A program made the translations under genes and the position numbers. A stretch of 64,000 bases of DNA from an uncultured Bacteroidia bacterium. Its GTDB lineage: Bacteria > Bacteroidota > Bacteroidia > Bacteroidales > F082. Positions 1,163 through 64,000 of this stretch are shown piece by piece. The notes under the pieces are model-generated. The model did not search any database. It was not told the DNA's origin and saw only the letters and a program-made list of their open reading frames with translations. The stretch spans positions 1 through 64,000 of the forward strand of contig CADCIH010000005.1 in NCBI GenBank assembly GCA_902801465.1, read 5' to 3'. Positions within the stretch are counted from its first letter, which is position 1. Each line of letters starts with the position of its first letter.

Positions 1163-3658
1163 ATGAAATTAATTGACGATGATTTTTTGATGAGTGACAT
1201 GGTGGACTCGGGCAACTCGGATTTCATTCCCGTACTCACCATCGACGATATACATCTCAACCAAGACGAGAAAGTTCCTGATGTGCTTCCCGTCTTGCCC
1301 CTGCGAAACTCCGTGCTCTACCCAGGCGTGGTCATCCCCATCACCGTGGGCAGAAGCAAGTCGATGCAGCTGGTGAAGGAATACTATAAGAAACGCAAAC
1401 CCATCGGCGTGGTGGCGCAAAAAGACGCCAACGTGGAGGAACCTGGCATCGCCGACCTCTACCCAGTAGGCACCGTTGCCCAGATACTCAAGACCTTCCA
1501 GATGCCCGACGGCAACATGACCGTCATCATCCAAGGCAAACGCCGCTTCGAAATCGTCGAAGTGCAACAGATGGAGCCATACTTCATCGCCATGGTGCAA
1601 CCATACGAAGCCTCCGAAGAGGTGCCACGCGACCGGAAGTTCAAAGCCCTCATACAATCGGTCAAAGAACTCGCCGTCCAAGTCGTAGGCAAAAACCAAC
1701 GCCTCCCCGAAGAAGCCGGCTTCGCCATCAAAAACATCGACGACCCGGTCTTCCTGCTTAACTTCGTGGCCAGCAACGTGGAAGCCGACCTTCCAACAAA
1801 ACAACTGATGCTCGAATGCACCAACGTCGTCGATATGGCCAACAACCTGCTGGGCGTGCTCACCACAGCCCAACAGATGAACGAGCTCAAACAACAGATT
1901 CAAAGCAAGGTCAAGACCGACCTCGACAAACAACAGCGCGAGTTCCTGCTCAACCAACAGCTGCGTACCATCCAGGAAGAACTGGGCGGCTCTCCTAATG
2001 AACACGATATCAAGGAACTCCAGGAAAAAGCCGCCAAGAAGAAATGGACCAAAGAAGTCCAAGAAGTGTTTGAACGCGAGCTCAAGAAACTGGAGCGTAC
2101 CAACCCCCAAGCAGCCGAGTATGGCATACAACTCAACTACCTGCAATACCTCGTCGACCTGCCTTGGATGGATTATACCAAGGACAACTTCGACCTGAAA
2201 CGCGCCCAGAAGATCCTCGACGCCGACCACTTTGGCCTCGACAAGGTGAAGGAACGTATCATCGAACACCTAGCCGTCCTGAAGTTGAAGAACGACATGA
2301 AGGCGCCTATCCTCTGCCTGGTAGGTCCTCCCGGCGTTGGCAAGACCTCCCTGGGCAAATCGATCGCCCGCGCCCTCAACCGCAAATACGTCAGGATGTC
2401 GCTCGGCGGCGTCCGCGACGAGTCGGAACTCCGAGGCCATCGAAAGACCTATATCGGCGCCATGCCAGGCCGTATCATCCAAAACCTCCGTAAAGTGAAG
2501 TCGGGCAACCCCGTGTTCGTCCTCGACGAGATCGACAAAGTGAGTGGAAACAACATCAGCGGCGACCCGCAAGCAGCCCTGCTCGAGATCCTCGACCCGG
2601 AACAGAACTCCACCTTCTATGATAACTTCATGGAATTGGACTACGACCTCTCAAAGATCCTTTTCATCGCCACCGCCAATACCCTCTCGACCATCCATCC
2701 TGCCTTGCGCGACCGTATGGAGATTATCGACATCAACGGGTACCTGCGTGAGGAGAAATATGAGATCGCCAAGCGCCACCTCATACCAAAACAACTGAAA
2801 GAACATGGCATGGACGCCACCCAAATCACCTTCCCGAAAGACATCGTGATGCGGATCATCGACGACTATACCCGTGAGGCTGGCGTGCGTAACCTGGAAC
2901 GCCGCATCGCCGACGTGATGCGCGCCCGCGCCAAAGACGTGGTGCTCGAACAGTCGTCAGGTCGCAAGGTGACCGTCGAGGAACTCCGCAAGGTCCTCGG
3001 CGTGCCGATGCACCACGACGAGGACGAAGTGAAACATCCCATGCCTGGCGTGGCTACCGGCCTGGCCTGGACCTCAGTGGGAGGGGAGATCCTCTCCATC
3101 GAGGTGAGCCTCAGCCGTGGCGGCGGACATCTCTCACTCACAGGCAACCTCGGCGACGTGATGAAAGAGTCGGCCACCATCGCCTACGAGTTCATCAAGG
3201 CCCATAGCTCATTGCTCGAGATAAACTCCGACGTGTTCGACGCCTGGAACGTCCATATCCATGTGCCCGAAGGCGCTACACCCAAGGACGGACCCTCAGC
3301 GGGCATCACCATGCTGGCAGCCCTGACCTCGGCCTTCACCCAACGCAAGGTGAAAGGCCAACTGGCCATGACAGGAGAGATTACCCTCCGCGGCAAAGTG
3401 CTGCCCGTGGGCGGCATCAAAGAGAAGATGCTCGCCGCCAAACGAAACGGCGTCACCGATATCATCCTCTCCATCGACAATGAACGCGATATCAAAGACA
3501 TCAAAGAGGATTACGTCGAAGGTCTGAAATTCCACTATGTGAAAAACATGCTGGAAGTGGTTGATCTGGCACTGGAGAAGGAACAAGACCATAACGACCT
3601 CGACTATAACAAATACCTGATGAATCTCAGGACTGAAGTTATTGGGTTTAGGAACTGA
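1163..3658 (+). CDS. lon: ATP-dependent protease Lon
   Basis: Lon is a cytoplasmic AAA+ serine protease that degrades misfolded and regulatory proteins. Domain order is complete: an N-terminal LON substrate-binding domain (from [13 protein letters not shown], about residues 40-240); a coiled-coil segment; an AAA+ module with Walker A GPPGVGKT near residue 388 and Walker [10 protein letters not shown]; and a C-terminal protease domain. The catalytic dyad is visible: Ser in DGPSAG near residue 712 and Lys in GGIKEK near residue 753. I chose the ATG at 1163 (831 residues); an in-frame GTG at 1142 would add seven residues. The last codons and the stop run into a 7-bp repeat array (3653-3680), so the extreme C-terminus is probably array-shaped. 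Confidence 0.97.
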
Positions 3659-3735
3659 AAACTGAAAACGGAAAACTGAACGGCGTAAGCCCTCACCGAC
3701 CGAAGGGAGGTAAAGTGGAAAACGGAAAGTGGAAA
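3653..3735 (+). repeat. 7-bp repeat arrays flanking the lon / binding-protein gap
   Basis: Two short arrays with exact 7-bp period. Array 3653-3680 has four units of the form AAC(T/G)GAA. Array 3715-3735 has three units alternating GTGGAAA and ACGGAAA. The first contains the lon stop codon. The second contains the proposed GTG start of the next gene. Both belong to the heptamer-array class seen at 13 loci in this window. Confidence 0.85.
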
Positions 3736-5334
3736 ACGTTGCTGGGATGTTGCTTTTTGCTGCTTCTTCTGGGCTGCAGAAAGCCAGTGGATCCCAATGA
3801 AGGTCTGTCCATCTTCAAATACAACGAATCCGCCGGCATCCTGACTTTGGATCCGATCTATGCCAAAGACCTGCCTCACATCTGGGCTTGCAACCAACTC
3901 TTCAACAGTTTGGTGGCTTTTGATGAAGACATGGAAGTGGTGCCGCGATTGGCCCACTCATGGGAGATCAGCGGCGATGGGACCGTCTATACTTTCCATC
4001 TACGTACCGACGTGCCGTTCCATGACGACGATGCCATCCCTTTGGGCCGTTGCGTGAATGCGGAGGATGTTGTATATTCATTCAACAGAGTTGTTGATAA
4101 ATCGTTAAACTCTCCCGGGGCGTGGATTTTCGCGTCAGTGGCCCACGATGATAACGGTTATGCCTTTCATGCCCTTGATGACAGTACATTCCAGGTGCGT
4201 CTGGCAAAGCCTTTTCCTCCGTTTTTGGGTATTCTTTCCATGACCTATGCCTCCATCGTTCCCAAGGAGGCAGTGGAGTATTATGGCGACGAGTTCAGAA
4301 GGCATCCCGTTGGCACGGGCCCCTTCCGTTTCCAATACTGGAACGAGGGTGTGAAGCTGGTGATGCGCCGGAACCCCAACTATTTTGAGTTCGACGAAAA
4401 AGGGGAGAGGCTGCCGTATCTCGACGCGGTCTCCATCAGTTTCCTCATCGACCGTCAGGTGGCGTTTCTGGAGTTCATCAAAGGCAAGTTCGACTTCATG
4501 TCGGGCATCGACGCGCGTTATAAAGACGAACTGCTCACTTACGATGGCGAGCTTCGCCAGAAGTACGAGGACAAGATCGATCTGATCACGGGTCCTTACC
4601 TGAACACCGAATACATTTGCTTCTACGTTGATCCTGACGACACATTGGGCGTAGCGCGCTCGAAGGCTATGCGTCAGGCGGTGAGCCTAAGCATCGATCG
4701 CGACAAGATGTTGCGATACCTTCGCAATGGCATCGGCATTCCTGGTACTGGAGGCATGATCCCTGCGGGACTTCCCGGACATCGCGACAGCATAGGTTAC
4801 GATTACGATCTGAAACTAGCCCAACGCTTGGTGAAGGAAAACCGCCTTGAAGGTTATACCCTGAATCTCTCCACCACTGCCGAATATGCCGATATCGGCA
4901 AGTTTGTCCAAAGCCAGGTGGAGCAGGTGGGACTGAAATGCAAGATGGAGGTGATGCCTCCTGCCACTCTGCGCAGCATGAGAGGCAATGGCAGCCTTCA
5001 GTTTTTCCGTGCTTCTTGGGTCGCCGACTATCCCGATGCCGAGAACTACCTCTCGCTGTTTACCACGAGCAACTTCTCGCCCGATGGCCCCAACTATTCG
5101 CATTATTCCAATGTGAAATACGACCACCTCTACGGCAAAGCCATGGCTTGTACCGATGACAACGAACGTGCCGCTTATTATGCGGAAATGGATAGTCTGA
5201 TGATGCTGGATGCCCCCGTGGTAGTGCTGTTCTACGATGAGATACTGCGTTTTGTGAACAAGCGTGTTGAAGGACTGGGAACCAACCCTACCAACCTTCT
5301 AGATCTAAGGAAAGTCAGAATCCCCAACTCTTAA
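3715..5334 (+). CDS. ABC transporter solute-binding lipoprotein, family 5 (oligopeptide/nickel type)
   Basis: A 539-residue extracytoplasmic solute-binding protein of the SBP_bac_5 (OppA/DppA) family. The N-terminus has a signal peptide ending in a lipobox (LLGC, Cys about residue 21), so it should be a lipoprotein. Family features include LDPIYAKDLPHIWACNQLF, LAHSWEISGDGTVYTFHLR and RHPVGTGPFRF. No permease or ATPase gene adjoins it, so the substrate is open; peptides are the family default. No ATG is available. The GTG at 3715 lies inside a heptamer array; a TTG at 3739 is the alternative and would still leave a working signal peptide. The stop codon abuts another array. Confidence 0.88.
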   Translation: MENGKWKTLLGCCFLLLLLGCRKPVDPNEGLSIFKYNESAGILTLDPIYAKDLPHIWACNQLFNSLVAFDEDMEVVPRLAHSWEISGDGTVYTFHLRTDVPFHDDDAIPLGRCVNAEDVVYSFNRVVDKSLNSPGAWIFASVAHDDNGYAFHALDDSTFQVRLAKPFPPFLGILSMTYASIVPKEAVEYYGDEFRRHPVGTGPFRFQYWNEGVKLVMRRNPNYFEFDEKGERLPYLDAVSISFLIDRQVAFLEFIKGKFDFMSGIDARYKDELLTYDGELRQKYEDKIDLITGPYLNTEYICFYVDPDDTLGVARSKAMRQAVSLSIDRDKMLRYLRNGIGIPGTGGMIPAGLPGHRDSIGYDYDLKLAQRLVKENRLEGYTLNLSTTAEYADIGKFVQSQVEQVGLKCKMEVMPPATLRSMRGNGSLQFFRASWVADYPDAENYLSLFTTSNFSPDGPNYSHYSNVKYDHLYGKAMACTDDNERAAYYAEMDSLMMLDAPVVVLFYDEILRFVNKRVEGLGTNPTNLLDLRKVRIPNS

Positions 5335-6238: not shown

Positions 6239-7234
6239 ATGCGTTTCGTTATTTTATTGACTATGTTGTTGTTAACACAACCGCCAGATTCCGTTTTGGT
6301 GGCTTTCTGGAATATGGAGAATTTTTTCGATCCTTTTGTGGACAGTACCTTGACCTACAATGAGTTCACCGAAAAAGGCTCGCAGAAATGGACGATGCAA
6401 CGTTTTTATCAGAAACGAAACAACATCTATAAAGCCATCTTGGCCTTTTCACACAACCAAGCCATAGGCATCCTGGGCGTGTGTGAGGTGGAGAACGAGT
6501 TTGTGCTTAATGCGCTGTTCGGTCTGACACCGCTCAAAAGATTCAAATATCGCTGGATTCATTATGATGGACCCGACCGGCGCGGCATCGACCCGGCCAT
6601 CGTGTATTCACTCGATCGCTTCCAGTTGCTTTATAGCGAAGCCTTCCCGTATCGAAACCCTGACAACCCTAACATGGTCTCACGCGACATCCTGTATGCC
6701 AAGTTCTTCGACTACCGACAAGACACCTTGCACTGCTTCGTGAACCACTGGCCTTCGAAATACCGCGGCGAGCTGGAAACCGTCGACGCCCGTAACTGCG
6801 CCGCCACTATCGTGCGACACAAAGTGGATTCCATCGTCACCATCAACCCCCAAGCCAAAATATTGATCATGGGCGACTTCAACGACACACCTGACGCCCC
6901 CTGCCTTAGCCAGGTGCTGTGCGCCAATACCAATGGGGAAGGATTACTTTGCAACCTTTTTGCCAACGCCAAAACACTGGACTTTAAAGGCACCTTGAAA
7001 TACCAGGAATCGTGGATGGTGTTCGACCAGATCATCGTCTCGAAACCATTGCTCAAAGCCGATAGCGCCACCCTGCATTGCAATCCTAACGATGTCCATA
7101 TCGTTCACGAGGATATGCTACTCACCGACGACCCGAGTTACCATGGGCAGAAACTGAACCGCACCTATGTCGGCCCGAAATACTACGGAGGCTTCAGTGA
7201 TCATCTTCCAGTGACGCTCCTGCTTCGGTACTGA
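6239..7234 (+). CDS. secreted endonuclease/exonuclease/phosphatase-fold hydrolase
   Basis: A 331-residue protein with a short hydrophobic N-terminus (MRFVILLTMLLLTQ) and an EEP (DNase I-like) domain. Hallmarks are AFWNMENFFDP, GVCEVEN with the metal-binding Glu, NHWPSK, ILIMGDFNDTP with the catalytic D-x-N, and FSDHLPVTL at the end. The substrate could be DNA, a phosphoinositide-like ester or another phosphodiester; the sequence does not decide. The ATG at 6239 is preferred over a TTG two codons earlier. Its 3' end overlaps the convergent AddB-like gene by 41 bases. Confidence 0.88.
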   Translation: MRFVILLTMLLLTQPPDSVLVAFWNMENFFDPFVDSTLTYNEFTEKGSQKWTMQRFYQKRNNIYKAILAFSHNQAIGILGVCEVENEFVLNALFGLTPLKRFKYRWIHYDGPDRRGIDPAIVYSLDRFQLLYSEAFPYRNPDNPNMVSRDILYAKFFDYRQDTLHCFVNHWPSKYRGELETVDARNCAATIVRHKVDSIVTINPQAKILIMGDFNDTPDAPCLSQVLCANTNGEGLLCNLFANAKTLDFKGTLKYQESWMVFDQIIVSKPLLKADSATLHCNPNDVHIVHEDMLLTDDPSYHGQKLNRTYVGPKYYGGFSDHLPVTLLLRY

Positions 7235-25167: not shown

Positions 25168-25254
25168 GCCCAGGTGGTGAAATTGGTAGACACGCTACTT
25201 TGAGGGGGTAGTGCCGATTACGGCATGCAAGTTCGACTCTTGTCCTGGGCACCA
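25168..25254 (+). tRNA. tRNA-Leu (anticodon GAG)
   Basis: A class II tRNA. The acceptor stem GCCCAGG pairs with CCTGGGC, the D-arm segment GGTGAAATTGGTAGACACG is leucine-type, and the anticodon loop is TTTGAGG. A long variable arm (GGTAGTGCCGATTACGGCAT) and T-loop GTTCGACTC follow. The CCA end is encoded (25252-25254). Confidence 0.95.
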
Positions 25255-25273
25255 TCGAAACAAAAACTCCTTA

Positions 25274-25355
25274 GCCCCGATGGCGGAATTGGTAGACGCG
25301 TACGTTTCAGGTGCGTATTTCGAGAGGAGTGCAGGTTCGACTCCTGTTCGGGGCA
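25274..25355 (+). tRNA. tRNA-Leu (anticodon CAG)
   Basis: The acceptor stem GCCCCGA pairs with TCGGGGC. It has a leucine-type D-arm, anticodon loop TTCAGGT, a long variable arm and T-loop GTTCGACTC. The CCA is not encoded. It lies 19 bases after the first tRNA-Leu and is probably co-transcribed with it. Confidence 0.95.
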
Positions 25356-25360
25356 CATCA

Positions 25361-54092: not shown

Positions 54093-56219
54093 ATGAAAAA
54101 AACTGTATTAATCATGGCAAGTGTAATCGCTTTGGCGGCTTGCACGGAGAAGCCCCAGCCACGCTATCAGGTGGCAAGCTACCCTGATGCCTTCAGGGAC
54201 GAAACCGTAGTTGACGACTATTTCGGAACTCAAGTGGCAGACCCCTACCGCTGGCTTGAGAACGACACCTCAGTTGAAACCAGCGCCTGGGTTGAAGCTG
54301 AACGCAAAGTCACAGCCGACTACCTTAGCCATATCCCCTTCCGTGGCGCCATCAAGGACCGTTTGACACAGGTGATGAACTACGAACGCTACAGCGCACC
54401 AGGCAAGCGCTTCGGACGCTACATTTACAGCAAGAACGATGGTCTTCAGAACCAGAGTGTGATTTACCTCCAGTATCCAGGCCAGGAACCTGAGGTGTTA
54501 CTCGATCCCAACAAGCTCTCCGACGACGGCACCGTGTCATTTGGCGGTGGCTCACAGTCGAACGACGGCAAATACTACGCCTACCTCATTCAGCGTAGCG
54601 GCTCCGACTGGGTCGAGATTTACGTGATGGACATTGCCACCCGTGAGCTCCTCCCCGACCATATCGAATGGGCCAAGTTCACCGGTGCCTCGTGGTACAA
54701 GGACGGATTCTTCTATGCCGCCTACGACAAACCTGTCGAAGGCAAGGAGTTCAGCAACGTGAACGAAAACCATAAGATCTATTACCACAAACTCGGCACC
54801 TCGCAGGACGAAGACCAGCTGTTTTATGAAAACCCCGAGCAGCCTCGTTATTTCCACCAAGTGGATCTCACCGAGGATGAACACTATATGTTCCTCTTCG
54901 AGAGTGGCCAAGGCGCTGGAAGCACCCTCTGGATCAGGGATATGCAAGACCCCAAAGGCCAGTTCGTGAAGATTGCAGACGATATGGACTACCAATACAT
55001 GCCTATCGATGTCATCGACGATGTGGTCTACTTGTTTACCAACTATAACGCTCCTAAGGGTCGTGTGGTTTGCTTCCCCGTCAAAGCCCCGCAAATGGAG
55101 AACTGGAGAGACCTGATTCCCGAGTCGGACAACGTGCTGGTTTCCGCCCAGATGGCCGCTGGCAAGATGATTGTCACTTACGACAAGGACGCCGCCAACC
55201 ACGCCTACGTGTATGACCTCGAAGGCAAACAACTCCAGGAGATTGCCCTGCCCACCTATGGTGGGGTCGGCTTCAGTAGCCGGTATGATGAACCCGAGGT
55301 ATATTATGCTTTCACCTCGTTTGTGTATCCTACCACCATTTTCAAATACGACATTGACGCCAACACCTCTGAGGTGTTCCGTGCCCCTCAGGTCGACTTC
55401 AACCCGGCCGACTTCGTCACCGAACAGGTGTTTGTCACCTCGAAGGATGGCACCAAGGTGCCGATGTTCCTGACCTATAAGTCAACCCTGCAGAAAGACG
55501 GCAAGAATCCCACCCTACTCTATGGCTACGGCGGCTTCAACATCACCTTGAATCCTGGTTTCAGCACTTCTCGTCTGCCCTTCCTTGAGAACGGTGGCAT
55601 CTATGCCCAGATGAACTTGCGCGGCGGTAACGAATACGGTGAGGAATGGCATCTCGCCGGCACCAAGCTTCAGAAGCAGAACGTGTTCGACGACTGTATA
55701 GCCTGCGCTGAATACCTTATTAGTAACAATTACACTTCGGCTGACTATCTCGCTTTGAATGGTGGCTCCAATGGAGGTCTGCTCGTTGGCGCCGTCATCA
55801 ACCAGCGTCCTGACCTCTTCAGGGTGGCTGTGCCACAAGTCGGCGTGATGGATATGTTGCGTTACCACCTCTTCACCATTGGCTGGAACTGGGCGAGCGA
55901 CTATGGCACCAGCGAAGATGACGAAGCCATGTTCAAGGCTTTGTATGCCTACTCACCGCTGCACACCATCCAGAGCGGTGAGAACGTGCATTATCCCGCC
56001 ATTATGGTGACCACCGCCGACCATGATGACCGTGTGGTTCCGGCCCACAGCTTCAAGTATGCCGCTGCACTGCAGGCTGCACAGACCGGTTCAGAGCCCA
56101 AGATCATCCGCATCGACAGCAAAGCTGGCCATGGTGGAGGCAAACCTGTCGCCAAGGTGCTGGAGGAACAGGCGGATATCTACTCCTTTATCCTTTACAA
56201 CATGGGATTGACTTATTAA
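54093..56219 (+). CDS. prolyl oligopeptidase (S9A) lipoprotein
   Basis: A 708-residue serine peptidase with a lipoprotein signal (LAAC, Cys about residue 17). The N-terminal propeller begins after DPYRWLENDTS. The C-terminal alpha/beta-hydrolase holds Ser in GGSNGGLLVGAV (near residue 560), Asp in DHDDRVVP (near 645) and His in AGHGGGKP (near 679), a complete triad. It cleaves short peptides after proline. Periplasmic or outer-membrane location is inferred from the lipobox. It follows parE by 32 bases, and a structured element follows its stop. Confidence 0.95.
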   Translation: MKKTVLIMASVIALAACTEKPQPRYQVASYPDAFRDETVVDDYFGTQVADPYRWLENDTSVETSAWVEAERKVTADYLSHIPFRGAIKDRLTQVMNYERYSAPGKRFGRYIYSKNDGLQNQSVIYLQYPGQEPEVLLDPNKLSDDGTVSFGGGSQSNDGKYYAYLIQRSGSDWVEIYVMDIATRELLPDHIEWAKFTGASWYKDGFFYAAYDKPVEGKEFSNVNENHKIYYHKLGTSQDEDQLFYENPEQPRYFHQVDLTEDEHYMFLFESGQGAGSTLWIRDMQDPKGQFVKIADDMDYQYMPIDVIDDVVYLFTNYNAPKGRVVCFPVKAPQMENWRDLIPESDNVLVSAQMAAGKMIVTYDKDAANHAYVYDLEGKQLQEIALPTYGGVGFSSRYDEPEVYYAFTSFVYPTTIFKYDIDANTSEVFRAPQVDFNPADFVTEQVFVTSKDGTKVPMFLTYKSTLQKDGKNPTLLYGYGGFNITLNPGFSTSRLPFLENGGIYAQMNLRGGNEYGEEWHLAGTKLQKQNVFDDCIACAEYLISNNYTSADYLALNGGSNGGLLVGAVINQRPDLFRVAVPQVGVMDMLRYHLFTIGWNWASDYGTSEDDEAMFKALYAYSPLHTIQSGENVHYPAIMVTTADHDDRVVPAHSFKYAAALQAAQTGSEPKIIRIDSKAGHGGGKPVAKVLEEQADIYSFILYNMGLTY

Positions 56220-56220
56220 T

Positions 56221-56440
56221 GTTACTTTTCCCATTGATGGAAAAGTAACCAAAAGATCTAGGCCAAAAACATCGGCCCACCGCACAGCCGCCCTAAGTGG
56301 GTGACCCTCAAGGCTGGGAGTGCCTTCGTTCCGAAGGCAAACGCTTCGCGCCCAGCCCTGAGGCTCAACCCACTTAGTTCGTCTTTTGGGCGGGCGCTGC
56401 TCCGGTTTTTGGCCGTGGCCCACGCGCCCATCCCGTGGCG
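56221..56440. repeat. large structured intergenic element with five nested or sequential stems
   Basis: Non-coding. Stems read by eye: 56221-56231 with 56239-56249 (11 bp); 56261-56270 with 56405-56414 (10 bp); 56293-56302 with 56368-56377 (10 bp); 56305-56318 with 56351-56363; and 56321-56328 with 56332-56339. The last four are coaxially nested. It starts one base after the peptidase stop and ends at the next (convergent) gene stop. Either an interspersed repeat or a structured RNA. Confidence 0.75.
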
Positions 56441-56441
56441 G

Positions 56442-57668
56442 TTAGTCCTTCTTTATTATCTTCTTGATTGTATAGCCGTTGCCGCAGTGGTATCTAGCGA
56501 CATAAACACCAGGTCGTAAATTGGTATTATTTACCAGTCTACCTGACATATCGAAAACCTCCACCCCTAAAACATCATCGTTTGAATCGTTTTCCGCGAT
56601 GGCGTCGTGGGTGGCGATGCTGATGTCGAAGCCGTTGTCCTCTGAGATCATCGGGTAATTGGTGGTGACCAAGCGGATGCGGTAATGTTCACCAGTAAAG
56701 ATACCTTGAGGGATGTTGACGGTGAGGCTTCCGCTGGTGTTGGTGGTGATCCTGCCCAGTTCAGTAGGTGAGCTGAAGCTACCGTTGGCTGCCGAGAGTT
56801 GTGCGATGACCTGGTTGGGCTCTTTGTCGAGGTTGTCGGGGCTCATGGTGCCAGTGAGGGTGAACGGGATGGTGAGCTCCTCTCCTATCAGATAATGGCT
56901 TTGTGGGAGGGCGCCCATCTGGATGCTGGGGTTGTATATCAGCAGGATGTCGTCGACATACATGTCGTCGGCAGTACCTCCAGCGCCTGGGACCTCGTTG
57001 GTGGTGATGGTGAAGAGGATATAGCGGGGGTCGTTGCAGGGACCGTTTTGCACGAAGGGTACGGAGAGGCGGCGCCAGGTATAGCTGCCGTTGGCCTCGC
57101 TGGTGCGGTGGAAGGAGGTCATGGCAGTGGCCACCAACTTGTCGGATGGGTCGAGAGTGCCGTTCGCCACCTCCTTGAAGTCGGCGTCGCCATGGATCAA
57201 GGCCCTTGCACGAGCGTTTTGGCTGGGACTAGCCGAGCGGAAGCACACCCATACCGTCAACGAGTCGGGAATAGTGTTGATAGGCGTGTTGAAGCGAGCA
57301 TCGGAACGTTGCGTGTAGTTGTAGTTGCTGCTTCCCGAGGCGCTCATGCTGCCAGCGTTCATCCTGCCACAGGTAAGGTTGCCGTTGGCGGTGACACCCA
57401 TGACCGATTTGGGCCACATCCGCACACTTCTCGTTCCGGAAGATCCGGGTCTTACCTGGTTCGAAGGCTCGATCTGTTTCGACAAGAAGCCAGAGAAGGT
57501 TCCTGACGCGGACATGCCGGAATGCCAGTGAATGGGTTCGTAAGTGTCGCTTCCCGAGCCGAAATTGGCCCAGTTTTCAAAGCCCCGGTTCTCAAACTGG
57601 GTGCCGTATTGCGCCAAGCCCAGCAAATAGCTGAGACAAAGGCATAAAAACAAACTAATTCTTTTCAT
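56442..57668 (-). CDS. secreted PCMD-like protein with T9SS sorting domain
   Basis: A 408-residue exported protein. It has a signal peptide (MKRISLFLCLCLSYLLGLAQ) and a beta-sandwich region (about 22-240) of the putative carbohydrate-metabolism-domain type, with NRGFENWANFG, MSASGTFSGFLSKQ, and a DDMYVDDILLIYNP end. A second beta-sandwich (about 245-345) follows. A Por sorting domain closes it (VEVFDMSGRLVNNTNLRPGVYVARY..IKKIIKKD). Function is unknown; glycan binding is the likeliest guess. A -7 box (57674-57681) ends only about six bases from the start codon, implying an almost leaderless mRNA. Confidence 0.82.
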   Translation of the reverse strand: MKRISLFLCLCLSYLLGLAQYGTQFENRGFENWANFGSGSDTYEPIHWHSGMSASGTFSGFLSKQIEPSNQVRPGSSGTRSVRMWPKSVMGVTANGNLTCGRMNAGSMSASGSSNYNYTQRSDARFNTPINTIPDSLTVWVCFRSASPSQNARARALIHGDADFKEVANGTLDPSDKLVATAMTSFHRTSEANGSYTWRRLSVPFVQNGPCNDPRYILFTITTNEVPGAGGTADDMYVDDILLIYNPSIQMGALPQSHYLIGEELTIPFTLTGTMSPDNLDKEPNQVIAQLSAANGSFSSPTELGRITTNTSGSLTVNIPQGIFTGEHYRIRLVTTNYPMISEDNGFDISIATHDAIAENDSNDDVLGVEVFDMSGRLVNNTNLRPGVYVARYHCGNGYTIKKIIKKD

Positions 57669-57673
57669 CAGGG

Positions 57674-57681
57674 CAAAAGTA
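57674..57681 (-). promoter_or_regulatory. -7 element abutting the start of the PCMD-like gene
   Basis: Minus-strand TACTTTTG; five bases separate it from the ATG at 57666-57668. Confidence 0.45.
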
Positions 57682-57702
57682 AAAAAAAAACTAACAATTT
57701 TC

Positions 57703-57731
57703 TTGGTTTTTTTTAAAAAAATGTAACTTTG
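57703..57731 (+). promoter_or_regulatory. promoter of glmS
   Basis: TTG at 57703-57705 and TAACTTTG at 57724-57731, 18 bases apart. ATG at 57752. There is no glmS ribozyme in this short leader. Confidence 0.7.
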
Positions 57732-57751
57732 CTCTTTTAATTCTTATTACA

Positions 57752-59596
57752 ATGTGTGGAATTGTAGCATACGTAGGGCATCAAGAAGCTTACCCCATCC
57801 TCATCGAAGGATTGAAACGCCTTGAATACCGTGGATATGACAGCGCTGGCGTGGCACTGCTGAACCAAAGGGATCAACTGAATGTGTATAAGGCCAAAGG
57901 CAAGGTCTCCGACCTGGAAGCCAAGGTAGCCGACAAGGATGTGACAGGCCATATAGGCATCGCTCATACCCGTTGGGCCACCCATGGTGAACCTAACGAG
58001 ACCAACGCGCACCCTCACCTCTCCAAGTCAGGCAACATCGCCTTGATTCACAACGGCATCATCGAGAACTACCTCAGCCTGCGCAAGGAGTTGGAGAAGC
58101 GCGGATTCGAGTTCAAATCGTCGACCGACACAGAGGTGCTCACCAACCTCATCGAAGACGTACAGCAAAGCGAAAATGTCGATCTCTTCGAGGCCGTCCG
58201 TATTGCTTTGAACCACGTGATTGGTGCCTACGCCATCGCCATCGTGGAGAAAGGTCATCCCGACCAGCTGATTGCAGCGCGTAAAGGCAGTCCAATGGTC
58301 ATCGGTATTGGCGACTGCGAGTATTTCATCGCTTCCGACGCCACCCCCATCGTGGGTCGTACCCAGAAAGTGGTGTATATCGAGGATGAGCAGGTGGTGC
58401 GTATTAAATTAGGTGAAGAGCTGCACATCAAGACCATTCAGGATGTGGAGGCCATCCCCTACGTTCAGGAGCTGAAGATGAACCTCGACAGCATCGAGAA
58501 GGCCGGCTTCGACCACTTCATGATGAAGGAGATCTACGAGCAGCCGTCCATCGTGCGCGACACCATGCGCGGACGTCTCCATCCCGAGAGCAACACCGTC
58601 CGTCTGGGCGGCATCATCCAATACGAGAAACAGCTGCTTTATGCCGACAACATCGTGTTTGTGGCTTGCGGTACCTCATGGCATGCCAGCCTGGTGGGAA
58701 GCTACATGATCGAAAAGCTCGCCAAGATCCGCGTCAAGGTGGAGTACGCATCAGAGTTCCGTTATCGTGACCCTGTGGTCACTCCTCATGATGTGGTGAT
58801 TGCCGTGTCGCAGTCGGGTGAGACCGCCGATACTTTGGCCGCCATCAACCTGGCCAAGGAGAAAGGCGCCATCGTGCTTGGCATCTGCAACGTGATTGGC
58901 TCCTCCATCTCCCGCGCCACCGACGCTGGAATCTATACCCATGCCGGTCCCGAGATCGGCGTGGCCTCCACCAAGGCTTTCACCTCGCAGGTGACCGTGA
59001 TGGCCATGCTAGCCTTGCGTTTGGCCGAGTTGAAAGGCACCTTGAAGGACGAGGAACGCCTGGAGTTCATCAAGGAACTGGACAGCATCCCGGAGAAAAT
59101 ACAGTGGACGTTGGACCACAGCGGACATGTGAAGGACATCGCTGCCAAGTACAAGGACGTGCGCAACATGCTCTACCTTGGCCGTCTGCAAAACTACCCC
59201 GTGGCTCTGGAAGGCGCCTTGAAGCTGAAAGAGATCTCCTATATCCACGCTGAAGGCTATCCAGCCGCAGAGATGAAACACGGTCCCATCGCCTTGATCG
59301 ACAAGGATATGCCCGTGGTGTTTATCGCCACCAACCACAGCACCTATGAGAAGGTCATCAGCAATATCCAAGAAGTGAAGGCCCGCGACGGCAAGATCAT
59401 CGCCATCGTCAGCCAAAAGGACGTGCTCGCACGTAAGATGGCCGACTATGTCATCGAGATCCCTGAGACCGAATGCCTCTACTCGCCTCTGCTGGCCACC
59501 GTGCCGCTTCAAATCCTCGCCTACCATATTGCAGTGATGCGTGGCTGCAATGTCGACCAGCCTAGAAACTTGGCAAAATCAGTTACAGTTGAATAA
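57752..59596 (+). CDS. glmS: glutamine--fructose-6-phosphate aminotransferase (isomerizing)
   Basis: A 614-residue enzyme making glucosamine-6-phosphate, the entry to peptidoglycan and LPS amino sugars. MCGIVAYVG exposes Cys at position 2 as the glutaminase nucleophile. HTRWATHGEPNETNAHPH and two SIS isomerase domains (CGTSWHASLVGSYMIE, SQSGETADTLAAI, LGRLQNYPVALEGALKLKE) follow. The C-terminus NLAKSVTVE is canonical. The leader is only about 20 bases, so any control must act elsewhere; note the RapZ-type domain encoded at 10780-12228. Confidence 0.98.
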   Translation: MCGIVAYVGHQEAYPILIEGLKRLEYRGYDSAGVALLNQRDQLNVYKAKGKVSDLEAKVADKDVTGHIGIAHTRWATHGEPNETNAHPHLSKSGNIALIHNGIIENYLSLRKELEKRGFEFKSSTDTEVLTNLIEDVQQSENVDLFEAVRIALNHVIGAYAIAIVEKGHPDQLIAARKGSPMVIGIGDCEYFIASDATPIVGRTQKVVYIEDEQVVRIKLGEELHIKTIQDVEAIPYVQELKMNLDSIEKAGFDHFMMKEIYEQPSIVRDTMRGRLHPESNTVRLGGIIQYEKQLLYADNIVFVACGTSWHASLVGSYMIEKLAKIRVKVEYASEFRYRDPVVTPHDVVIAVSQSGETADTLAAINLAKEKGAIVLGICNVIGSSISRATDAGIYTHAGPEIGVASTKAFTSQVTVMAMLALRLAELKGTLKDEERLEFIKELDSIPEKIQWTLDHSGHVKDIAAKYKDVRNMLYLGRLQNYPVALEGALKLKEISYIHAEGYPAAEMKHGPIALIDKDMPVVFIATNHSTYEKVISNIQEVKARDGKIIAIVSQKDVLARKMADYVIEIPETECLYSPLLATVPLQILAYHIAVMRGCNVDQPRNLAKSVTVE

Positions 59597-59626
59597 TTAA
59601 ATATAAACATATAAAAATTTATTAAC

Positions 59627-60199
59627 ATGGACATAAAGACATTTTTCAAGAAGATCTTGGGCACCTTGGAACAGGAGGTGAAAACCGAGGTCAACAGGAC
59701 CAAGCAACAGCTGAAGTCTGAAGCGAGACAAGCCATCAACCAGACCCAACAACAATCACAACAACCCCAGCAGCCTCGTCCTCAACAGCCTCAAGCGCAT
59801 GCCGAGACGGAACGCGTTAGTCGCACCGATTCGCAATGTATGACCTATTTCAGGGAGATCTTGAGTCAGGAATTCGGTCAGTATGCTGTTCGTGAGAACG
59901 TGCCGGTTCAAGAACTGGTGGGCGATATCGCGGATCAGTTCAAGCTGTATGAAACCCGCCCCTATCAGGCCTACAAAGCAGAATGGGGCTTGCCTTATAC
60001 CTTTGTCTTGTACAGTGGCGAAAGTGTGAAGGGTGTCATCCTCATTGGCAAGGGTCAGAACCAGTCTAGAAAAGTGAAGTTCTTGATTTCAAAGATGTAC
60101 GCCAAGAAGATTCATGCTCCTTTTATCACGTTCTACATGGATGCTCCGAACGAGAGAGAGTATGTGGTTGAGAGGATTAGGGAGTTTGTGGGGAGATAA
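59627..60199 (+). CDS. Q-rich linker protein of unknown function, upstream of the RT locus
   Basis: A 190-residue protein I do not recognise. Residues 1 to about 40 are an amphipathic, charged helix (MDIKTFFKKILGTLEQEVKT). Residues about 40-65 are Gln/Pro-rich (QQQSQQPQQPRPQQPQ). Residues about 70-190 look like a compact alpha/beta domain containing PYTFVLYSGESVKGVILIG and HAPFITFYMDAPNEREYV. There is no signal peptide. It lies 30 bases after glmS, and its stop codon is the first part of a heptamer array leading into the RT-associated RNA. A nuclease-like fold is possible but unproven. Confidence 0.65.
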   Translation: MDIKTFFKKILGTLEQEVKTEVNRTKQQLKSEARQAINQTQQQSQQPQQPRPQQPQAHAETERVSRTDSQCMTYFREILSQEFGQYAVRENVPVQELVGDIADQFKLYETRPYQAYKAEWGLPYTFVLYSGESVKGVILIGKGQNQSRKVKFLISKMYAKKIHAPFITFYMDAPNEREYVVERIREFVGR

Positions 60200-60235
60200 G
60201 AGATAAAAGTTAAGAGGTAAAAGATAAAAGTTAGG
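60194..60235 (+). repeat. 7-bp repeat array at the head of the RT locus
   Basis: Six units (AGATAAG, AGATAAA, AGTTAAG, AGGTAAA, AGATAAA, AGTTAGG) with exact 7-bp period. They run from the stop codon of the Q-rich protein gene into the first bases of the predicted RNA closing stem. Confidence 0.88.
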
Positions 60236-60368
60236 GAAAGGGGATGCAGTTCAACTGCGCCTGTGGCGGATGCAGCATGACTCGCGAAAGAAGGCTTTGC
60301 AGGCAGCCTGGTCATGTACCATCTTGTATTTCAGCGACTCGCTGAATCAAAAGCGTTCCCCTTTCTCT
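60233..60368 (+). ncRNA. predicted structured RNA upstream of the reverse transcriptase
   Basis: A roughly 136-nt element closed by a 12-bp stem: 60233-60244 (AGGGAAAGGGGA) with 60357-60368 (TCCCCTTTCTCT, one G-T pair). Inside are three hairpins: 60246-60249/60255-60258 (GCAG/CTGC); a two-part stem 60276-60281/60311-60316 (CATGAC/GTCATG) plus 60292-60296/60305-60309 (AGGCT/AGCCT); and 60330-60336/60340-60346 (TTCAGCG/CGCTGAA). A U-rich tail follows and the RT ATG is 12 bases downstream. The region is also open in frame with the RT from an ATG at 60270, but the hairpins argue for RNA function. Confidence 0.65.
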
Positions 60369-60380
60369 TTTTGTTTTGTC

Positions 60381-61580
60381 ATGGATAGCATCATTGCGCA
60401 ACTGACCGATCAGAGGGCATGGGAGGAACTCCTTGCACGCCGTCTGGTGAGAGGTTGCTACACTTGGCATGGTTTCGAGGATGCTGACAGTTTTGTCGCG
60501 GATCAGAAATATCTCGCAGTTGCCCAACGCCTAAACCGAGGTGAGAGTTTGGGTCTTCCTGTCAAAAAGATTGTCAACAAAGTCGGAACCGACAAGAAAC
60601 GGGTGGTCTACACTTTTGGACGTGACGAGATGCGGGCTTTGAGTCTTATTTCCTACCTGCTTTACCGTTACGACCATTGTTTTGCCCCCGGCTGTTATGC
60701 CTTCCGTCAGGGACTTCGTCCGCAGGATGCCATCCGCAATCTCAACAAAGCGCTCAAGTATCGTCCGATGTGGGCTTACAAGCTCGACATTCACGATTAT
60801 TTCAATTCCATTCCCGTTGAGAAGCTCTTGCCCATGCTGGTCGAGATGCTTTCCGACGATCAGCCACTATATCGGTTCTTTGAGCAGATGCTCATCAACC
60901 CGAAGGTGCTTTACAACGGACAGGTGGTTGAGGAAAAGCATGGCATCATGGCTGGAACACCCACCTCTCCTTTTTTGGCCAATGTGTATCTGAGTGATAT
61001 TGACCATCGTTTTCACGACGCGGGGGTGGTATACGCTAGATACTCAGATGATATTATCTTGTTTGCTGAGGACCGTGAGACCTTGGAATTGCATAAGGCT
61101 GAGCTTTTGCGGTTGATTGGTGAACACGGGCTGACGGTCAACCCCGACAAGGAGCATGTCTATTCGCCCGATGAGCCTTTTGAGTTTTTGGGTTTTCGTT
61201 GCCACGGCAACGAAATCGGCATCGGCACATCCACCATCAAGAAGATGAAGGGTAAGATCAGCCGTCGCGCCCGTGCCATGATGCGTTGGCGAAAGCGCAA
61301 GGGCGTCAGCGCTGAACGGGCGATGGAAGCGATGATCCGACACTATGACAAGAAGTTCTTTGAGGATGACGACCCCGAGAGTCTTACGTGGTCGCGATGG
61401 TTTTTCCCCGTCATCAACCGTACCGAGGGGTTGAGGGAGATTGACCAATATTTACAACAGGAGCTACGTTTCCTAAGCACTGGAAAGCACACCAAAGCCA
61501 ACTACCGTGTCGATTATGAGACCTTGAAGCGCTTGGGTTACCGAAGCCTGGTCAACGAGTTTTACCGGTCCCAAAAATAG
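60381..61580 (+). CDS. free-standing reverse transcriptase (RNA-directed DNA polymerase)
   Basis: A 399-residue single RT protein. Polymerase motifs: KLDIHDYFNSIP with the first catalytic Asp at residue 136; HGIMAGTPTSPFLANVYL around 188-205; YARYSDDIIL with Y-S-D-D at 221-224 (catalytic Asp 223 and 224); and FEFLGF near 269. A C-terminal thumb-like helical part follows (SRRARAMMRWRKRKG). It has no endonuclease (HNH/GIY) domain. The retron hallmarks NAxxH and VTG are absent. It resembles group II-like RTs, but its class is unclear. The ATG at 60381 is preferred; an in-frame ATG at 60270 lies inside the structured RNA. The 3' end overlaps a convergent small gene by 19 bases. Confidence 0.88.
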   Translation: MDSIIAQLTDQRAWEELLARRLVRGCYTWHGFEDADSFVADQKYLAVAQRLNRGESLGLPVKKIVNKVGTDKKRVVYTFGRDEMRALSLISYLLYRYDHCFAPGCYAFRQGLRPQDAIRNLNKALKYRPMWAYKLDIHDYFNSIPVEKLLPMLVEMLSDDQPLYRFFEQMLINPKVLYNGQVVEEKHGIMAGTPTSPFLANVYLSDIDHRFHDAGVVYARYSDDIILFAEDRETLELHKAELLRLIGEHGLTVNPDKEHVYSPDEPFEFLGFRCHGNEIGIGTSTIKKMKGKISRRARAMMRWRKRKGVSAERAMEAMIRHYDKKFFEDDDPESLTWSRWFFPVINRTEGLREIDQYLQQELRFLSTGKHTKANYRVDYETLKRLGYRSLVNEFYRSQK

Positions 61581-61864
61581 AAGAAGTCAAACACCCGACA
61601 AAACAGTTCGCGGTACCATGACTGATGCAGTTCCAGGTCTGCATCCCTGGTGCGGCTGCGGAATATGTGCATGTAATAGAAGAAGTTATGGACACGCCAC
61701 TCGCGGACTTGCGACTCGAGGTCACGGTTGGCGACGGCCATCCCGGGCTCACATTGCTCGCGGAGGGCGATCAGGAAATTGCGTATATCGGTCCTGCTCC
61801 TGATGAAGGCGGAGCCGTTGATGTGCGTGTTGTCGCGGCTGAGTATGACCTGGTCGTCACTCAT
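61562..61864 (-). CDS. small aromatic-rich protein of unknown function
   Basis: A 100-residue protein, unrecognised. It starts MSDDQVILSRDNTHINGSAF and ends in an aromatic helix-rich segment (YRELFCRVFDFFYFWDR). No signal peptide. Its start overlaps the end of the metallophosphoesterase gene by 8 bases, so it is the last gene of that minus-strand operon. Its 3' end overlaps the convergent RT gene by 19 bases. The tight overlap on the 5' side supports it being a real gene. Confidence 0.65.
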   Translation of the reverse strand: MSDDQVILSRDNTHINGSAFIRSRTDIRNFLIALREQCEPGMAVANRDLESQVREWRVHNFFYYMHIFRSRTRDADLELHQSWYRELFCRVFDFFYFWDR

Positions 61865-62744
61865 TGTTCAGAAGCCGGTATTCGTATGTCACCTTGTCGG
61901 CGCAGCCAACCACGAGGTAGGAAGGTTCCGTCTTGCCGTCGTTAAGGTTGTCGGTCATCACATATTTCACACCTGCGAAGGTCTTCACATCGCGATAGTG
62001 GAAATGTCCCATGATCACCATGTCAACCGCGTTCCTGCTCATCAGGTCCATGAAGGCGTATTGTTCGTCCTCTGGCAGGTTGGCTGCAGGAGTGGTAGTG
62101 TAGTTGTAGGTGGTGCGGAAGAGCCAGTTGTGGCTGATGACGAAACAATAGCGGTACTCGGTGCGCTGGCTGAGTTGTTCCTCGAGCCAGTCCAACTGTC
62201 TTCTGCCGTGCGTTCCGTTGCCCGAATCCAGGAAGATGAACAGGTCTTTCAGTCCTGAGACGGTGTTCACCGTGACGGTATAGGTGGAGGTGTGGAAATG
62301 TTGCTTGTAGAACTTGGCGCAGTCGAAATACACGTCATGGTTTCCGATGATCGGGAAGCAGGGGTCGTTTTCGGCTTGGGTCAGCGGATCGAACATCATG
62401 GCCGAATCGGCTAGGATGAATGGTCCTTCCCCACTCTCGTTGGCGAGGTCGCCGGCGATGATTGAGAAAACCGCTTCGGGATCGTTGCGTTCGATGGTGA
62501 TATACTTGGCCAGACGTGAGTTGTCGTCGTTGATATGGCTGTCGGAGCAGGAATAGAAGGTGTAGTTGTCGGGCACGTTGTTGATGACGGGCATGCCGTT
62601 TTGTTCGTTCCAGTCGAGCCAGTCGGCAACGCGTTGTTCGGTGTCACTGCGGTTGATGATCATGCCGGGGATGTCGAGGCGGTTACAGGAAGAGGCCATC
62701 AAGAGTCCCAGGGCCAGGATAATGGTATAGGTGTGTTTTTTCAT
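61857..62744 (-). CDS. calcineurin-like metallophosphoesterase lipoprotein
   Basis: A 295-residue lipoprotein (MASSC, Cys about residue 20). The metal-site motifs are in order: SDSHINDD, AGDLANES, GNHDVYFD, ISHNW and MGHFHYRDV. It belongs to the metallophosphatase superfamily; the substrate is unknown. It lies between an outer-membrane barrel gene (5 bases upstream) and the small unknown gene, in a three-gene minus operon. Confidence 0.88.
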   Translation of the reverse strand: MKKHTYTIILALGLLMASSCNRLDIPGMIINRSDTEQRVADWLDWNEQNGMPVINNVPDNYTFYSCSDSHINDDNSRLAKYITIERNDPEAVFSIIAGDLANESGEGPFILADSAMMFDPLTQAENDPCFPIIGNHDVYFDCAKFYKQHFHTSTYTVTVNTVSGLKDLFIFLDSGNGTHGRRQLDWLEEQLSQRTEYRYCFVISHNWLFRTTYNYTTTPAANLPEDEQYAFMDLMSRNAVDMVIMGHFHYRDVKTFAGVKYVMTDNLNDGKTEPSYLVVGCADKVTYEYRLLNNE

Positions 62745-62749
62745 GGCGA

Positions 62750-63466
62750 TCAGAAATTATCATAGGTGAAACCGAGGTTGATGAAGAAGCCGTTGTATTG
62801 CGACGAGAGGTTGAGCACACCTGCGGGATGCAGTCCGGCTTCGCCGATGATGCGCCACTGTTCGTTGATGTCATAATAGCCGTGGATGGTATAATAGAAC
62901 AAGGTGACGCGTTCGATGATGAACTCGCGGTAGTTGGAGATGCCACCGCCGATGTTCCAATGATGTTTGTTAATGGTAGGGTCGTCGGCAAACAAATTCC
63001 CCTCGATTTTGAACACCACGTTCATTGGCTCGAAGATGACGCCTTCTCCCCCGTTTTTTCTCAATGGAATCTCGGCGATATAGCGGTTGCAGAGGCCCAA
63101 TTGGAAGTTCCAGTGGAGGTTGCGGTAGCCCAGGGTGAGCATGGCATTGAACTCCTGAAGACCGTAGCTGGAGAAAAGACGGTAGAGGTAGCGGTTTTCG
63201 ATGTAGGCATAGTCCCAATCGGTAAAACCGTCAGTGCCAATTTGATAGGCTAGGTTGAAACTGTGCCTGGAGGGACCCGCTTGATAGCCTAGGTTAAGGC
63301 CGTTGCCGTTGTCGAATCTGGCATCGAAAGCCAAAACGGCGTTAGGGGTGAATTTCTGGGTCCGGTTGTAATCACCTTCGACGTTGAACCTGTATCGTGC
63401 GAAGCCTTGAGCGTAGGTCCCGATAGCTATGGAACTTAGTAGGACAAGAAGTAATAGTCGTCTCAT
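62750..63466 (-). CDS. outer-membrane beta-barrel-like protein
   Basis: A 238-residue exported protein with a signal peptide (ending GTYAQ). The mature part has alternating hydrophobic beta-strand patterns, many Tyr/Phe/Trp/Asn residues and a final aromatic (TYDNF), as in small outer-membrane barrels. No named family is recognised. It is the first gene of the minus operon with the metallophosphoesterase. A -7 box lies at 63487-63494. Confidence 0.72.
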   Translation of the reverse strand: MRRLLLLVLLSSIAIGTYAQGFARYRFNVEGDYNRTQKFTPNAVLAFDARFDNGNGLNLGYQAGPSRHSFNLAYQIGTDGFTDWDYAYIENRYLYRLFSSYGLQEFNAMLTLGYRNLHWNFQLGLCNRYIAEIPLRKNGGEGVIFEPMNVVFKIEGNLFADDPTINKHHWNIGGGISNYREFIIERVTLFYYTIHGYYDINEQWRIIGEAGLHPAGVLNLSSQYNGFFINLGFTYDNF

Positions 63467-63486
63467 TTCAATTTTTTTTGTCGCGG

Positions 63487-63510
63487 CAAAGATAGGGTTT
63501 TTTATCTTTG
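63487..63510. promoter_or_regulatory. divergent -7 elements: OMP operon (minus) and nnr (plus)
   Basis: Minus-strand TATCTTTG at 63487-63494 and plus-strand TATCTTTG at 63503-63510 form a compact palindromic pair of promoter boxes. Confidence 0.6.
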
Positions 63511-63525
63511 CAAAAAATCTGGCTT

Positions 63526-64000
63526 ATGAAAATACTAAGCATTGAAAAGATTCGGGAAGCCGACCGTTACACCATTGAGAACGAACCTATCAGATCGATT
63601 GAACTGATGGAACGTGCTGCAGGACAGGCTTCTGAATGGTTGTCGCAACGACTTAAGCCCGACAACGAAGTAATGGTTTTTTGCGGCACGGGCAATAATG
63701 GCGGCGATGGTTTTGTAGTGGCAGAGCATCTATACCAAAAAGGGGTTGAACCTAAAGTGTTTATGGTTGGCGACCCTCACAAGATGAGTCTCGACTGTAA
63801 GGATGAAGTATGGATTCTAGAAACTAACACTGGCTTAAAACCAAACCAAATCCACACGGCGGATGATTTCCCCGCTTTTAACGGTGGAGAGATCATTATT
63901 GATGCTTTGTTTGGCTCAGGCTTGAACCGCCCAATCACAGGAATCGCAGCTGACCTTATTAATTATCTGAACCAACAGAACGCCATTCGCATTTCCATTG
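63526..64000 (+). CDS. nnr: NAD(P)H-hydrate epimerase domain of Nnr, 3' end outside window
   Basis: The first 158 residues of a YjeF_N-type epimerase that repairs hydrated NAD(P)H. Conserved segments are MKILSIEKIREADRYTIE, LMERAAGQ, CGTGNNGGDGFVVAEHL (the epimerase phosphate and catalytic loop) and IIDALFGSGLNRPI. In most Bacteroidota it is fused to an ADP-dependent dehydratase C-domain; that part is beyond the window. Confidence 0.92.
   Translation, partial: MKILSIEKIREADRYTIENEPIRSIELMERAAGQASEWLSQRLKPDNEVMVFCGTGNNGGDGFVVAEHLYQKGVEPKVFMVGDPHKMSLDCKDEVWILETNTGLKPNQIHTADDFPAFNGGEIIIDALFGSGLNRPITGIAADLINYLNQQNAIRISI

What the first reader, a model, noticed from the sequence alone, without database searches (positions are those of the whole stretch)
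60194..61580. Reverse transcriptase locus with a dedicated structured RNA in front of it
Seen: an RT with intact motifs (D136, Y-S-D-D at 221-224) starts 12 bases after a roughly 136-nt element with a 12-bp closing stem, three internal hairpins and a U-rich 3' flank. Known: in retrons and in several defence-associated RT systems (e.g. DRT2) an RT copies a structured RNA encoded directly upstream. Inference: this is an RT/ncRNA module, possibly anti-phage. It lacks the retron marks (NAxxH, VTG), any intron endonuclease domain and any clear diversity-generating TR/VR pair, so it may belong to an unassigned class.
Basis: partly seen in the sequence, partly recalled or inferred. Interest (0 to 1): 0.88.

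Follow-up and report, generated by a model that had tools for sequence, protein, structure and literature searches.

The report
UG26 reverse transcriptase with RT-5 RNA
A gut bacterium carries a compact three-part module, made of a reverse transcriptase, the small folded RNA it probably copies and a likely membrane-bound partner protein; each part was already catalogued separately, and the module most likely makes DNA that defends the cell against phages.

Summary
In detail: a 136-nt structured RNA (60233-60368) ends 12 bases before an intact RT gene (60381-61580). It is not an unassigned class: the RNA matches Rfam RT-5 (87.4 bits, cut-off 45.7) and the RT matches PADLOC RT_UG26 (523 bits, next 126). 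A model built without f56 and clade B finds 7 of their 8 RNAs and nothing beside 34 other RT loci. In two genomes the RNA lies 0.6-3 kb from the RT, so it is not simply the RT's leader. Most likely this is an uncharacterised DRT10-like phage-defence module in which the RT copies a short RNA segment into DNA that acts through the partner.

The parts
59627..60199 (+). Partner gene, 190 aa; PADLOC RTasCOG2852-like; N-terminal amphipathic helix, P/Q-rich linker, C-terminal domain
   Evidence: partner in 28 of 28 clade A loci with upstream sequence; in 22 of 172 family genomes, one copy each, all 22 with the RT
59633..59686 (+). Predicted amphipathic helix of the partner (residues 3-20)
   Evidence: hydrophobic moment 0.58, charge +2, 0.7% of shuffles as high; best of 6 offsets, which the shuffles do not correct for
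60233..60368 (+). Structured ncRNA, RT-5 family with its closing stem
   Evidence: covariation; z -3.83; own model R1 124.1 bits (the window is a training sequence)
60255..60359 (+). Part matched by Rfam RF03026 (RT-5)
   Evidence: 87.4 bits, cut-off 45.7
60233..60244 (+). P1 closing stem, 5' arm (pairs with 60357-60368)
   Evidence: helices 1-2: 10 of 12 pairs with both-sided changes
60357..60368 (+). P1 closing stem, 3' arm
   Evidence: helices 1-2
60246..60258 (+). P2 hairpin
   Evidence: helices 3-4: 4 of 5 pairs with both-sided changes
60259..60264 (+). Pseudoknot 5' strand GCCUGU, pairs with 60299-60304
   Evidence: helix 5: both-sided changes GC>AU, CG>UA, GC>UA in 2, 3 and 5 sequences; the sixth pair fails in 6 of 33
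60299..60304 (+). Pseudoknot 3' strand GCAGGC in the P3b loop
   Evidence: helix 5
60268..60324 (+). P3 long stem with P3a (60268-60272/60320-60324) and P3b (60293-60296/60305-60308)
   Evidence: helices 6-7: 13 of 16 pairs with both-sided changes
60330..60346 (+). P4 hairpin, 7 bp
   Evidence: a stem at the UCAAA in 33 of 33 RNAs, sequences differ (for L078 the script picked a shorter 5-bp stem)
60347..60356 (+). J4/1 linker UCAAAAGCGU: candidate reverse-transcription template (inferred)
   Evidence: UCAAA in 33 of 33 RNAs, then variable bases; A-B-A' test not above shuffles when any period is allowed
60381..61580 (+). UG26 reverse transcriptase, 399 aa
   Evidence: PADLOC RT_UG26 523 bits; D136, YSDD 221-224

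Best explanation
A class-2-like defence-associated RT module of the uncharacterised UG26 group: partner protein, RT-5 ncRNA and RT in close succession on one strand. SHOWN by sequence: the RT is intact; the RNA is a conserved pseudoknotted fold that goes with UG26 RTs; in one of two UG26 clades a partner gene precedes the RNA in every locus that could be checked; RNA and RT can lie apart. INFERRED: the RNA folds around the RT and presents a short single-stranded segment, best guess the UCAAA-containing linker just 3' of hairpin P4, as a template whose 5' edge is set by P4. The RT, perhaps primed by one of its own residues as in DRT9 and DRT10, makes cDNA, probably short repeats. The cDNA or the RT-RNA complex controls the partner, which probably sits on the membrane through its N-terminal helix and may be the effector that stops the infected cell. 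In clade B, which has no such partner, another effector or the cDNA itself would do this.
For: RT: 523 bits to RT_UG26; among other UG groups UG17 (DRT10) is next with 109, then UG27 102, UG4 97, Drt9 96. UG26 is one clade, support 99/97, apart from group II-like RTs. RNA: RT-5, covariation, blind detection of 7 of 8 RNAs of f56 and clade B. Not simply a leader of the RT gene: 3055 nt from the RT in L048 with K+-transport-like genes between (named by eye), 551 nt with an ORF between in L049; terminator-like hairpin just after the RNA in L052. Partner: 28 of 28 clade A loci with upstream sequence, absent from 5 of 5 clade B genomes, varied flanking genes. [quoted passage not shown] its authors propose that the cDNA modulates the membrane protein and say that all UG enzymes characterised so far are implicated in phage defence (PMC12632851 sections 6, 8, 10). 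PADLOC files RT_UG26 and RTasCOG2852 under DRT.
Against: No cDNA, RNA or phage data. A-B-A' pattern: UC recurs at some period of 6-14 in 33 of 33 linkers, but shuffles average 29.3; for 3-mers 19 of 33 against 20.2. The period-10 excess (28 against 6.0; 3-mers 16 against 2.9) may only reflect fixed linker length and the paired top of P1. The general RT model (126 bits) scores above every other UG group, so closeness to UG17 is weak, and the tree does not place UG26 relative to Drt2, Drt3a or UG4; UG17, UG27 and DRT9 rows could not be obtained. The window's neighbours are housekeeping-like. The nuclease-fold relation of the partner rests on PADLOC's name, and its membrane attachment on sequence alone; no structure could be predicted.
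Confidence: 0.58

Rival explanations
1. The RNA is a cis-acting leader (attenuator or riboswitch-like) that controls expression of the RT gene.
For: It ends 8-21 nt before the aligned RT start in 21 of 33 loci; U-rich 3' flank.
Against: In L048 it lies 3055 nt away with other genes between, in L049 551 nt away beyond another ORF; terminator-like hairpin after the RNA in L052; it stays 4-33 nt from the partner in the 26 loci measured and was not found in 34 loci of other RTs.
Confidence: 0.07
2. Retron-like: the RNA is an msr-msd that yields a single-copy msDNA primed by the RNA.
For: RT next to a structured upstream RNA.
Against: No NAxxH or VTG in the window RT; best retron model 64 bits against a cut-off of 235; Rfam finds RT-5 and no retron RNA at gathering cut-offs.
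Confidence: 0.05
3. Domesticated group II-like RT with a degenerate intron RNA, serving DNA repair or another housekeeping role rather than defence.
For: Best NCBIfam match is the group II maturase model, 120 bits but far below its cut-off of 300; the general RT model beats the other UG groups; housekeeping-like neighbours.
Against: UG26 forms its own clade apart from 12 group II-like RTs; the RNA covaries as RT-5; patchy presence, 24 of 173 family genomes, and varied flanks fit an accessory module.
Confidence: 0.15
4. Same module and defence role, but the RT makes untemplated or RNA-primed DNA and the RNA is only a scaffold.
For: DRT1 and other class 1 enzymes act without a template (abstract of PMC13275509 in the listing; passages of PMC13174585); the template pattern test was negative.
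Against: Class 2 enzymes studied so far use cis-encoded RNA as template (PMC13174585 passages); the profile neighbours of UG26 include UG17, Drt9 and Drt3a.
Confidence: 0.15

Closest known systems
PADLOC RT_UG26 (UG26 of the UG/Abi classification, Mestre et al. 2022, recalled; paper not held)
   Same: Window RT matches over its full length, 523 bits
   Different: No difference seen; I found no functional study of UG26 in the held library (22 papers, 20 shown)
Rfam RF03026, RT-5 RNA (Weinberg et al. 2017, recalled; not held)
   Same: Same RNA, 87.4 bits, cut-off 45.7
   Different: The 104-position Rfam model as printed has neither the closing stem P1 nor P2 and shows no pseudoknot pairs; 4 of 5 clade B RNAs fall below its cut-off
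DRT10 (UG17 + SLATT + ncRNA), PMC12632851
   Same: RT + about 137-nt ncRNA + probable membrane partner; single-stranded segment just 3' of a stable stem-loop
   Different: Different RT group (109 bits), different partner family, RNA between partner and RT rather than upstream of both; A-B-A' not shown here
DRT9 (UG28)
   Same: RT with upstream ncRNA
   Different: Drt9 profile only 96 bits; no conserved poly-U loop seen inside the fold; DRT9 ncRNA is 188 nt (PMC12489045 passages)
PADLOC RTasCOG2852
   Same: 17 of 21 partner proteins match at E up to 0.1, best 3.1e-8
   Different: Window's own match is weak (E 0.0019); no acidic residue is invariant or nearly invariant in the alignment, so nuclease activity is doubtful

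Membership tests
UG26 reverse transcriptases | Full-length match to the UG26 profile, best among UG groups | tested here: met
   523 bits, residues 3-399 to 2-397 of 398; next 126 bits
UG26 reverse transcriptases | Intact RT catalytic motifs | tested here: met
   D136, YSDD 221-224; YSDD in 35 of 35
Rfam RT-5 RNA | Score above the curated cut-off | tested here: met
   87.4 against 45.7 bits
Rfam RT-5 RNA | Conserved secondary structure | tested here: met
   30 of 39 pairs with both-sided changes in 33 RNAs; P4 left out of that count and checked apart
DRT class 2 | Phylogenetic position with DRT2, DRT3a, DRT9, DRT10 | tested here: inconclusive
   Tree places UG26 as its own clade; relation to Drt2, Drt3a and UG4 unresolved, no UG17 or DRT9 rows
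DRT class 2 | RNA-templated repeat cDNA | not testable with these tools
   Needs cDNA sequencing
DRT10 | UG17 RT | tested here: not met
   109 bits to UG17 against 523 to UG26
DRT10 | SLATT partner | tested here: not met
   Partner matches RTasCOG2852; no SLATT family among Pfam matches at E up to 1 for 21 members
DRT10 | A-B-A' template pattern | tested here: inconclusive
   Present but not above shuffles unless the period is fixed at 10
Anti-phage defence system | Protects against phage | not testable with these tools
   No experiment
Retron | NAxxH and VTG motifs (recalled), msr-msd RNA | tested here: not met
   Both absent from the window RT (among 35 UG26 proteins NAxxH occurs in 3, VTG in 1); no retron RNA at Rfam gathering cut-offs
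Group II intron | Maturase RT above cut-off and intron RNA | tested here: not met
   120 bits against a cut-off of 300; no intron RNA at Rfam gathering cut-offs
Diversity-generating retroelement | TR/VR repeat pair | tested here: not met
   No ungapped direct repeat of 30 or more bases in 56000-64000

The most novel reading that the evidence does not exclude
UG26 is a telomerase-like repeat synthesiser built differently from DRT10: template UCAAA(A/G)NNNN directly 3' of P4, realignment on a UC held in the top of the closing stem, giving about 10-nt repeats (window: ACGCTTTTGA), and the repeat DNA gates a membrane-anchored, catalytically dead nuclease-fold partner. Clade B would be a two-part form that works without it.
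Probability: 0.15. Interest if true: 0.78.

Novelty: new member of a known kind. Interest (0 to 1): 0.5.

Why it matters
It joins three separately catalogued parts (Rfam RT-5, PADLOC RT_UG26, PADLOC RTasCOG2852) into one testable module, adds a covarying pseudoknot and closing stem to the RNA, and gives exact RNA boundaries. If UG26 proves to copy RT-5 and act through this partner, it adds another RNA-templated RT immune system, from Bacteroidales, with a partner type other than SLATT, and bears on the proposal that repeat synthesis is a general theme of UG enzymes and related to telomerase.

Tried and rejected
Considered and rejected: RNA as generic repeat (one match in the genome); leader of the RT gene (L048, L049); the segment GUACCAUCUUGU (60316-60327) as template, because its base 89 (RNA numbering) covaries with base 39 (14 both-sided changes), although GU recurs there at period 10 by eye; retron, group II and DGR (see membership test).

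DRT11 to DRT15 gave no relevant paper. No terminator was found in 59500-61700, where shuffles gave 2.4 on average. The scanner reported no + strand terminator in L049, although a GC-rich hairpin with a T run follows the RNA there by eye. Dropped: L057, L060 and L072 are cut by contig ends, so 33 of 36 loci give an RNA. L056 is in the alignment but was missed by model R1. R1 was trained on 25 RNAs including the window, so its window score is no test. L110 was left out of the tree by the program.

Full report
What is there. The window is part of a 148,575-base contig of a 2.46-Mb, 34-contig genome. At 60381-61580 it holds a 399-aa RT with D136 and YSDD at 221-224. An RNA of 136 nt, 60233-60368, ends 12 bases before its ATG.

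Known names. The RNA is Rfam RT-5 (RF03026): 87.4 bits, cut-off 45.7, E 5.8e-16 for the whole window. The RT is PADLOC RT_UG26: 523 bits over residues 3-399; next come the general RT model with 126 bits, then UG17 109, UG27 102, UG4 97 and Drt9 96. The upstream protein matches PADLOC RTasCOG2852 weakly (E 0.0019), but 17 of 21 aligned relatives match at E up to 0.1, best 3.1e-8. So the 'unassigned class' reading fails; the parts are catalogued, and I found no functional study. A search for UG26 found 22 papers and showed 20. Judged by title, one of those shown concerns RTs: a survey that only lists UG26 among RTs of cold-seep viruses (PMC10504277, passages). 'RTasCOG2852', 'RF03026' and RT-5 phrases gave no paper. 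UG26 does not occur in the text of PMC12632851, PMC13174585, PMC8934634, PMC12483538 or PMC13275509 (term searches). Nothing outside that library was searched.

Relatives. UG26 occurs in 24 of 173 genomes of the family, all of one genus, and in 11 of 393 sampled order genomes. In the class sample only the window's own genome matched, 1 of 395. RT-5 matched in 7 of 393 order genomes, 6 above the cut-off, and all 7 have a UG26 RT. The other four RT genomes carry a diverged RNA: G066 passes Rfam in a smaller search, G084 and G264 are found by my model, and G171 was seen by alignment only. I worked with 36 UG26 loci (L047-L081 and L005). Three are cut by contig ends, leaving 33 RNAs.

The RNA fold. 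On a sequence-only MAFFT alignment of the 33 RNAs, 39 named pairs give 94.4% paired cells against 77.8 (sd 0.6) in 500 shuffles, 30 pairs with both-sided changes against 18.5, and a covariation score of 0.486 against 0.173; sliding the partners gives at most 53.2%. The structure was drawn from the window sequence and the Rfam fold, and relatedness inflates such counts, but both-sided changes occur in P1, P2, P3, P3b and the pseudoknot. The sixth pseudoknot pair fails in 6 of 33, and one P3a pair in 8 of 33. P4 was left out of that count because MAFFT put it out of register; each of 33 RNAs has a stem at an invariant UCAAA, with differing sequence. A model built from 25 RNAs (23 of the genus, L048 and L005) finds 7 of the 8 RNAs of f56 and clade B at E 4.6e-13 to 7.2e-6, with no other match at E up to 1 in 111 kb. 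It finds none in 34 loci fetched for other RTs, which hold only short flanks; the single match in that run is the window itself, a training sequence.

Not simply a leader of the RT gene. In L048 the RNA is 3055 nt from the RT, with two genes between that look like trkA and trkH (named by eye); in L049 it is 551 nt away with a 159-aa ORF between. In both it stays next to the partner. L052 has a 15-pair terminator-like hairpin just after the RNA. The scanner reported no + strand terminator in L049, although a hairpin with a T run is visible there.

The partner. It lies upstream of the RNA in 28 of 28 clade A loci that have upstream sequence: 26 by search, and L049 and L051 by ORF and alignment. 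The gap to the RNA is 4-33 nt in the 26 measured. In 172 family genomes it occurs in 22, one copy each, and all 22 have the RT. Two RT genomes are not in that list: G491, whose partner is present in L071, so it was either not drawn or missed, and G496, whose contig ends near the RT start. In a search of nine genomes at E up to 0.01 it is absent from 5 of 5 clade B genomes and present in the 4 from f56 and f111, which are the genomes of L048-L051. One of these, G387, has an extra copy with no RT-5 within the 8 kb fetched; its N-terminus looks like membrane segments. In most relatives the first residues form an amphipathic helix: 18 of 21 have at most 2% of shuffles as high and three lie at 5-6%, with the best of six offsets taken and not corrected for. 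In L080 they look like membrane segments. No acidic residue is invariant or nearly invariant, so I doubt that it is an active nuclease; the COG2852 relation rests on PADLOC's name. Nearest upstream genes fall into 15 clusters in 27 clade A loci by a crude ORF caller, which fits a unit that moves or is lost as a whole.

The tree. UG26 is one clade (99/97), apart from 12 group II-like RTs (90/98) and 5 other RTs; its relation to Drt2, Drt3a and UG4 is not resolved. L110 was left out by the program, and the Drt3a and UG4 branches are very long. Within UG26, families f63, f67 and f85 (clade B, without partner) split from f1, f56 and f111 (clade A, with partner).

How it likely works. DRT10 (UG17) is the closest worked example: a 137-nt ncRNA, a SLATT protein and the RT; protein-primed repeat cDNA; [quoted passage not shown] and the proposal that the cDNA modulates the membrane protein (PMC12632851, sections 6, 8 and 10 read). 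Class 2 enzymes studied so far use cis-encoded RNA as template (PMC13174585 passages). By analogy the J4/1 linker (60347-60356), with UCAAA invariant in 33 of 33 RNAs and a variable remainder, is my template candidate. The direct test was negative: UC recurs at some period of 6-14 in 33 of 33 linkers but in 29.3 on average after shuffling, and 3-mers in 19 against 20.2. Only a fixed period of 10 exceeds shuffles (28 against 6.0; 3-mers 16 against 2.9), and P1 may explain that. The template step, the cDNA, the membrane link and the anti-phage role are all inference.

Verdict. A real, well conserved module and a new member of a known kind, with each part already named. Its value lies in joining the parts, in the refined RNA and in the tests it allows.

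Noticed in passing
L047, L058, L061, L064, L065, L068, L071, L073: between RNA and RT: In eight loci the RNA-RT distance is 88-141 nt; the extra sequence has palindromic, repeat-like parts and reads in frame into the RT. With up to 1 mismatch a 16-base end motif occurs 1-2 times in each of 4 such genomes, the insert included, and not in the window's genome.
   Followed up: partly
L048 (G211), RNA 6805-6938, RT from 9994: Two K+-transport-like genes lie between the RNA and its RT, with the RNA still well matched (80.3 bits).
   Followed up: partly
L145 (G387:C26), 3090-3791: Extra partner gene with N-terminal membrane-like segments, no RT-5 in the 8 kb fetched; neighbours include proteins that look HEPN-like and SocA/Panacea-like by eye.
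   Followed up: partly
L049 and L057 (G387): Two UG26 RT copies, one cut by a contig end, both followed by homologous genes that look by eye like a large DNA methyltransferase.
   Followed up: no
L061 (G488), partner ORF: The partner frame is open through the upstream elongation-factor-like gene, giving one 697-aa ORF.
   Followed up: no
window 25168-25356: Two neighbouring tRNA-Leu genes, anticodons GAG and CAG.
   Followed up: no
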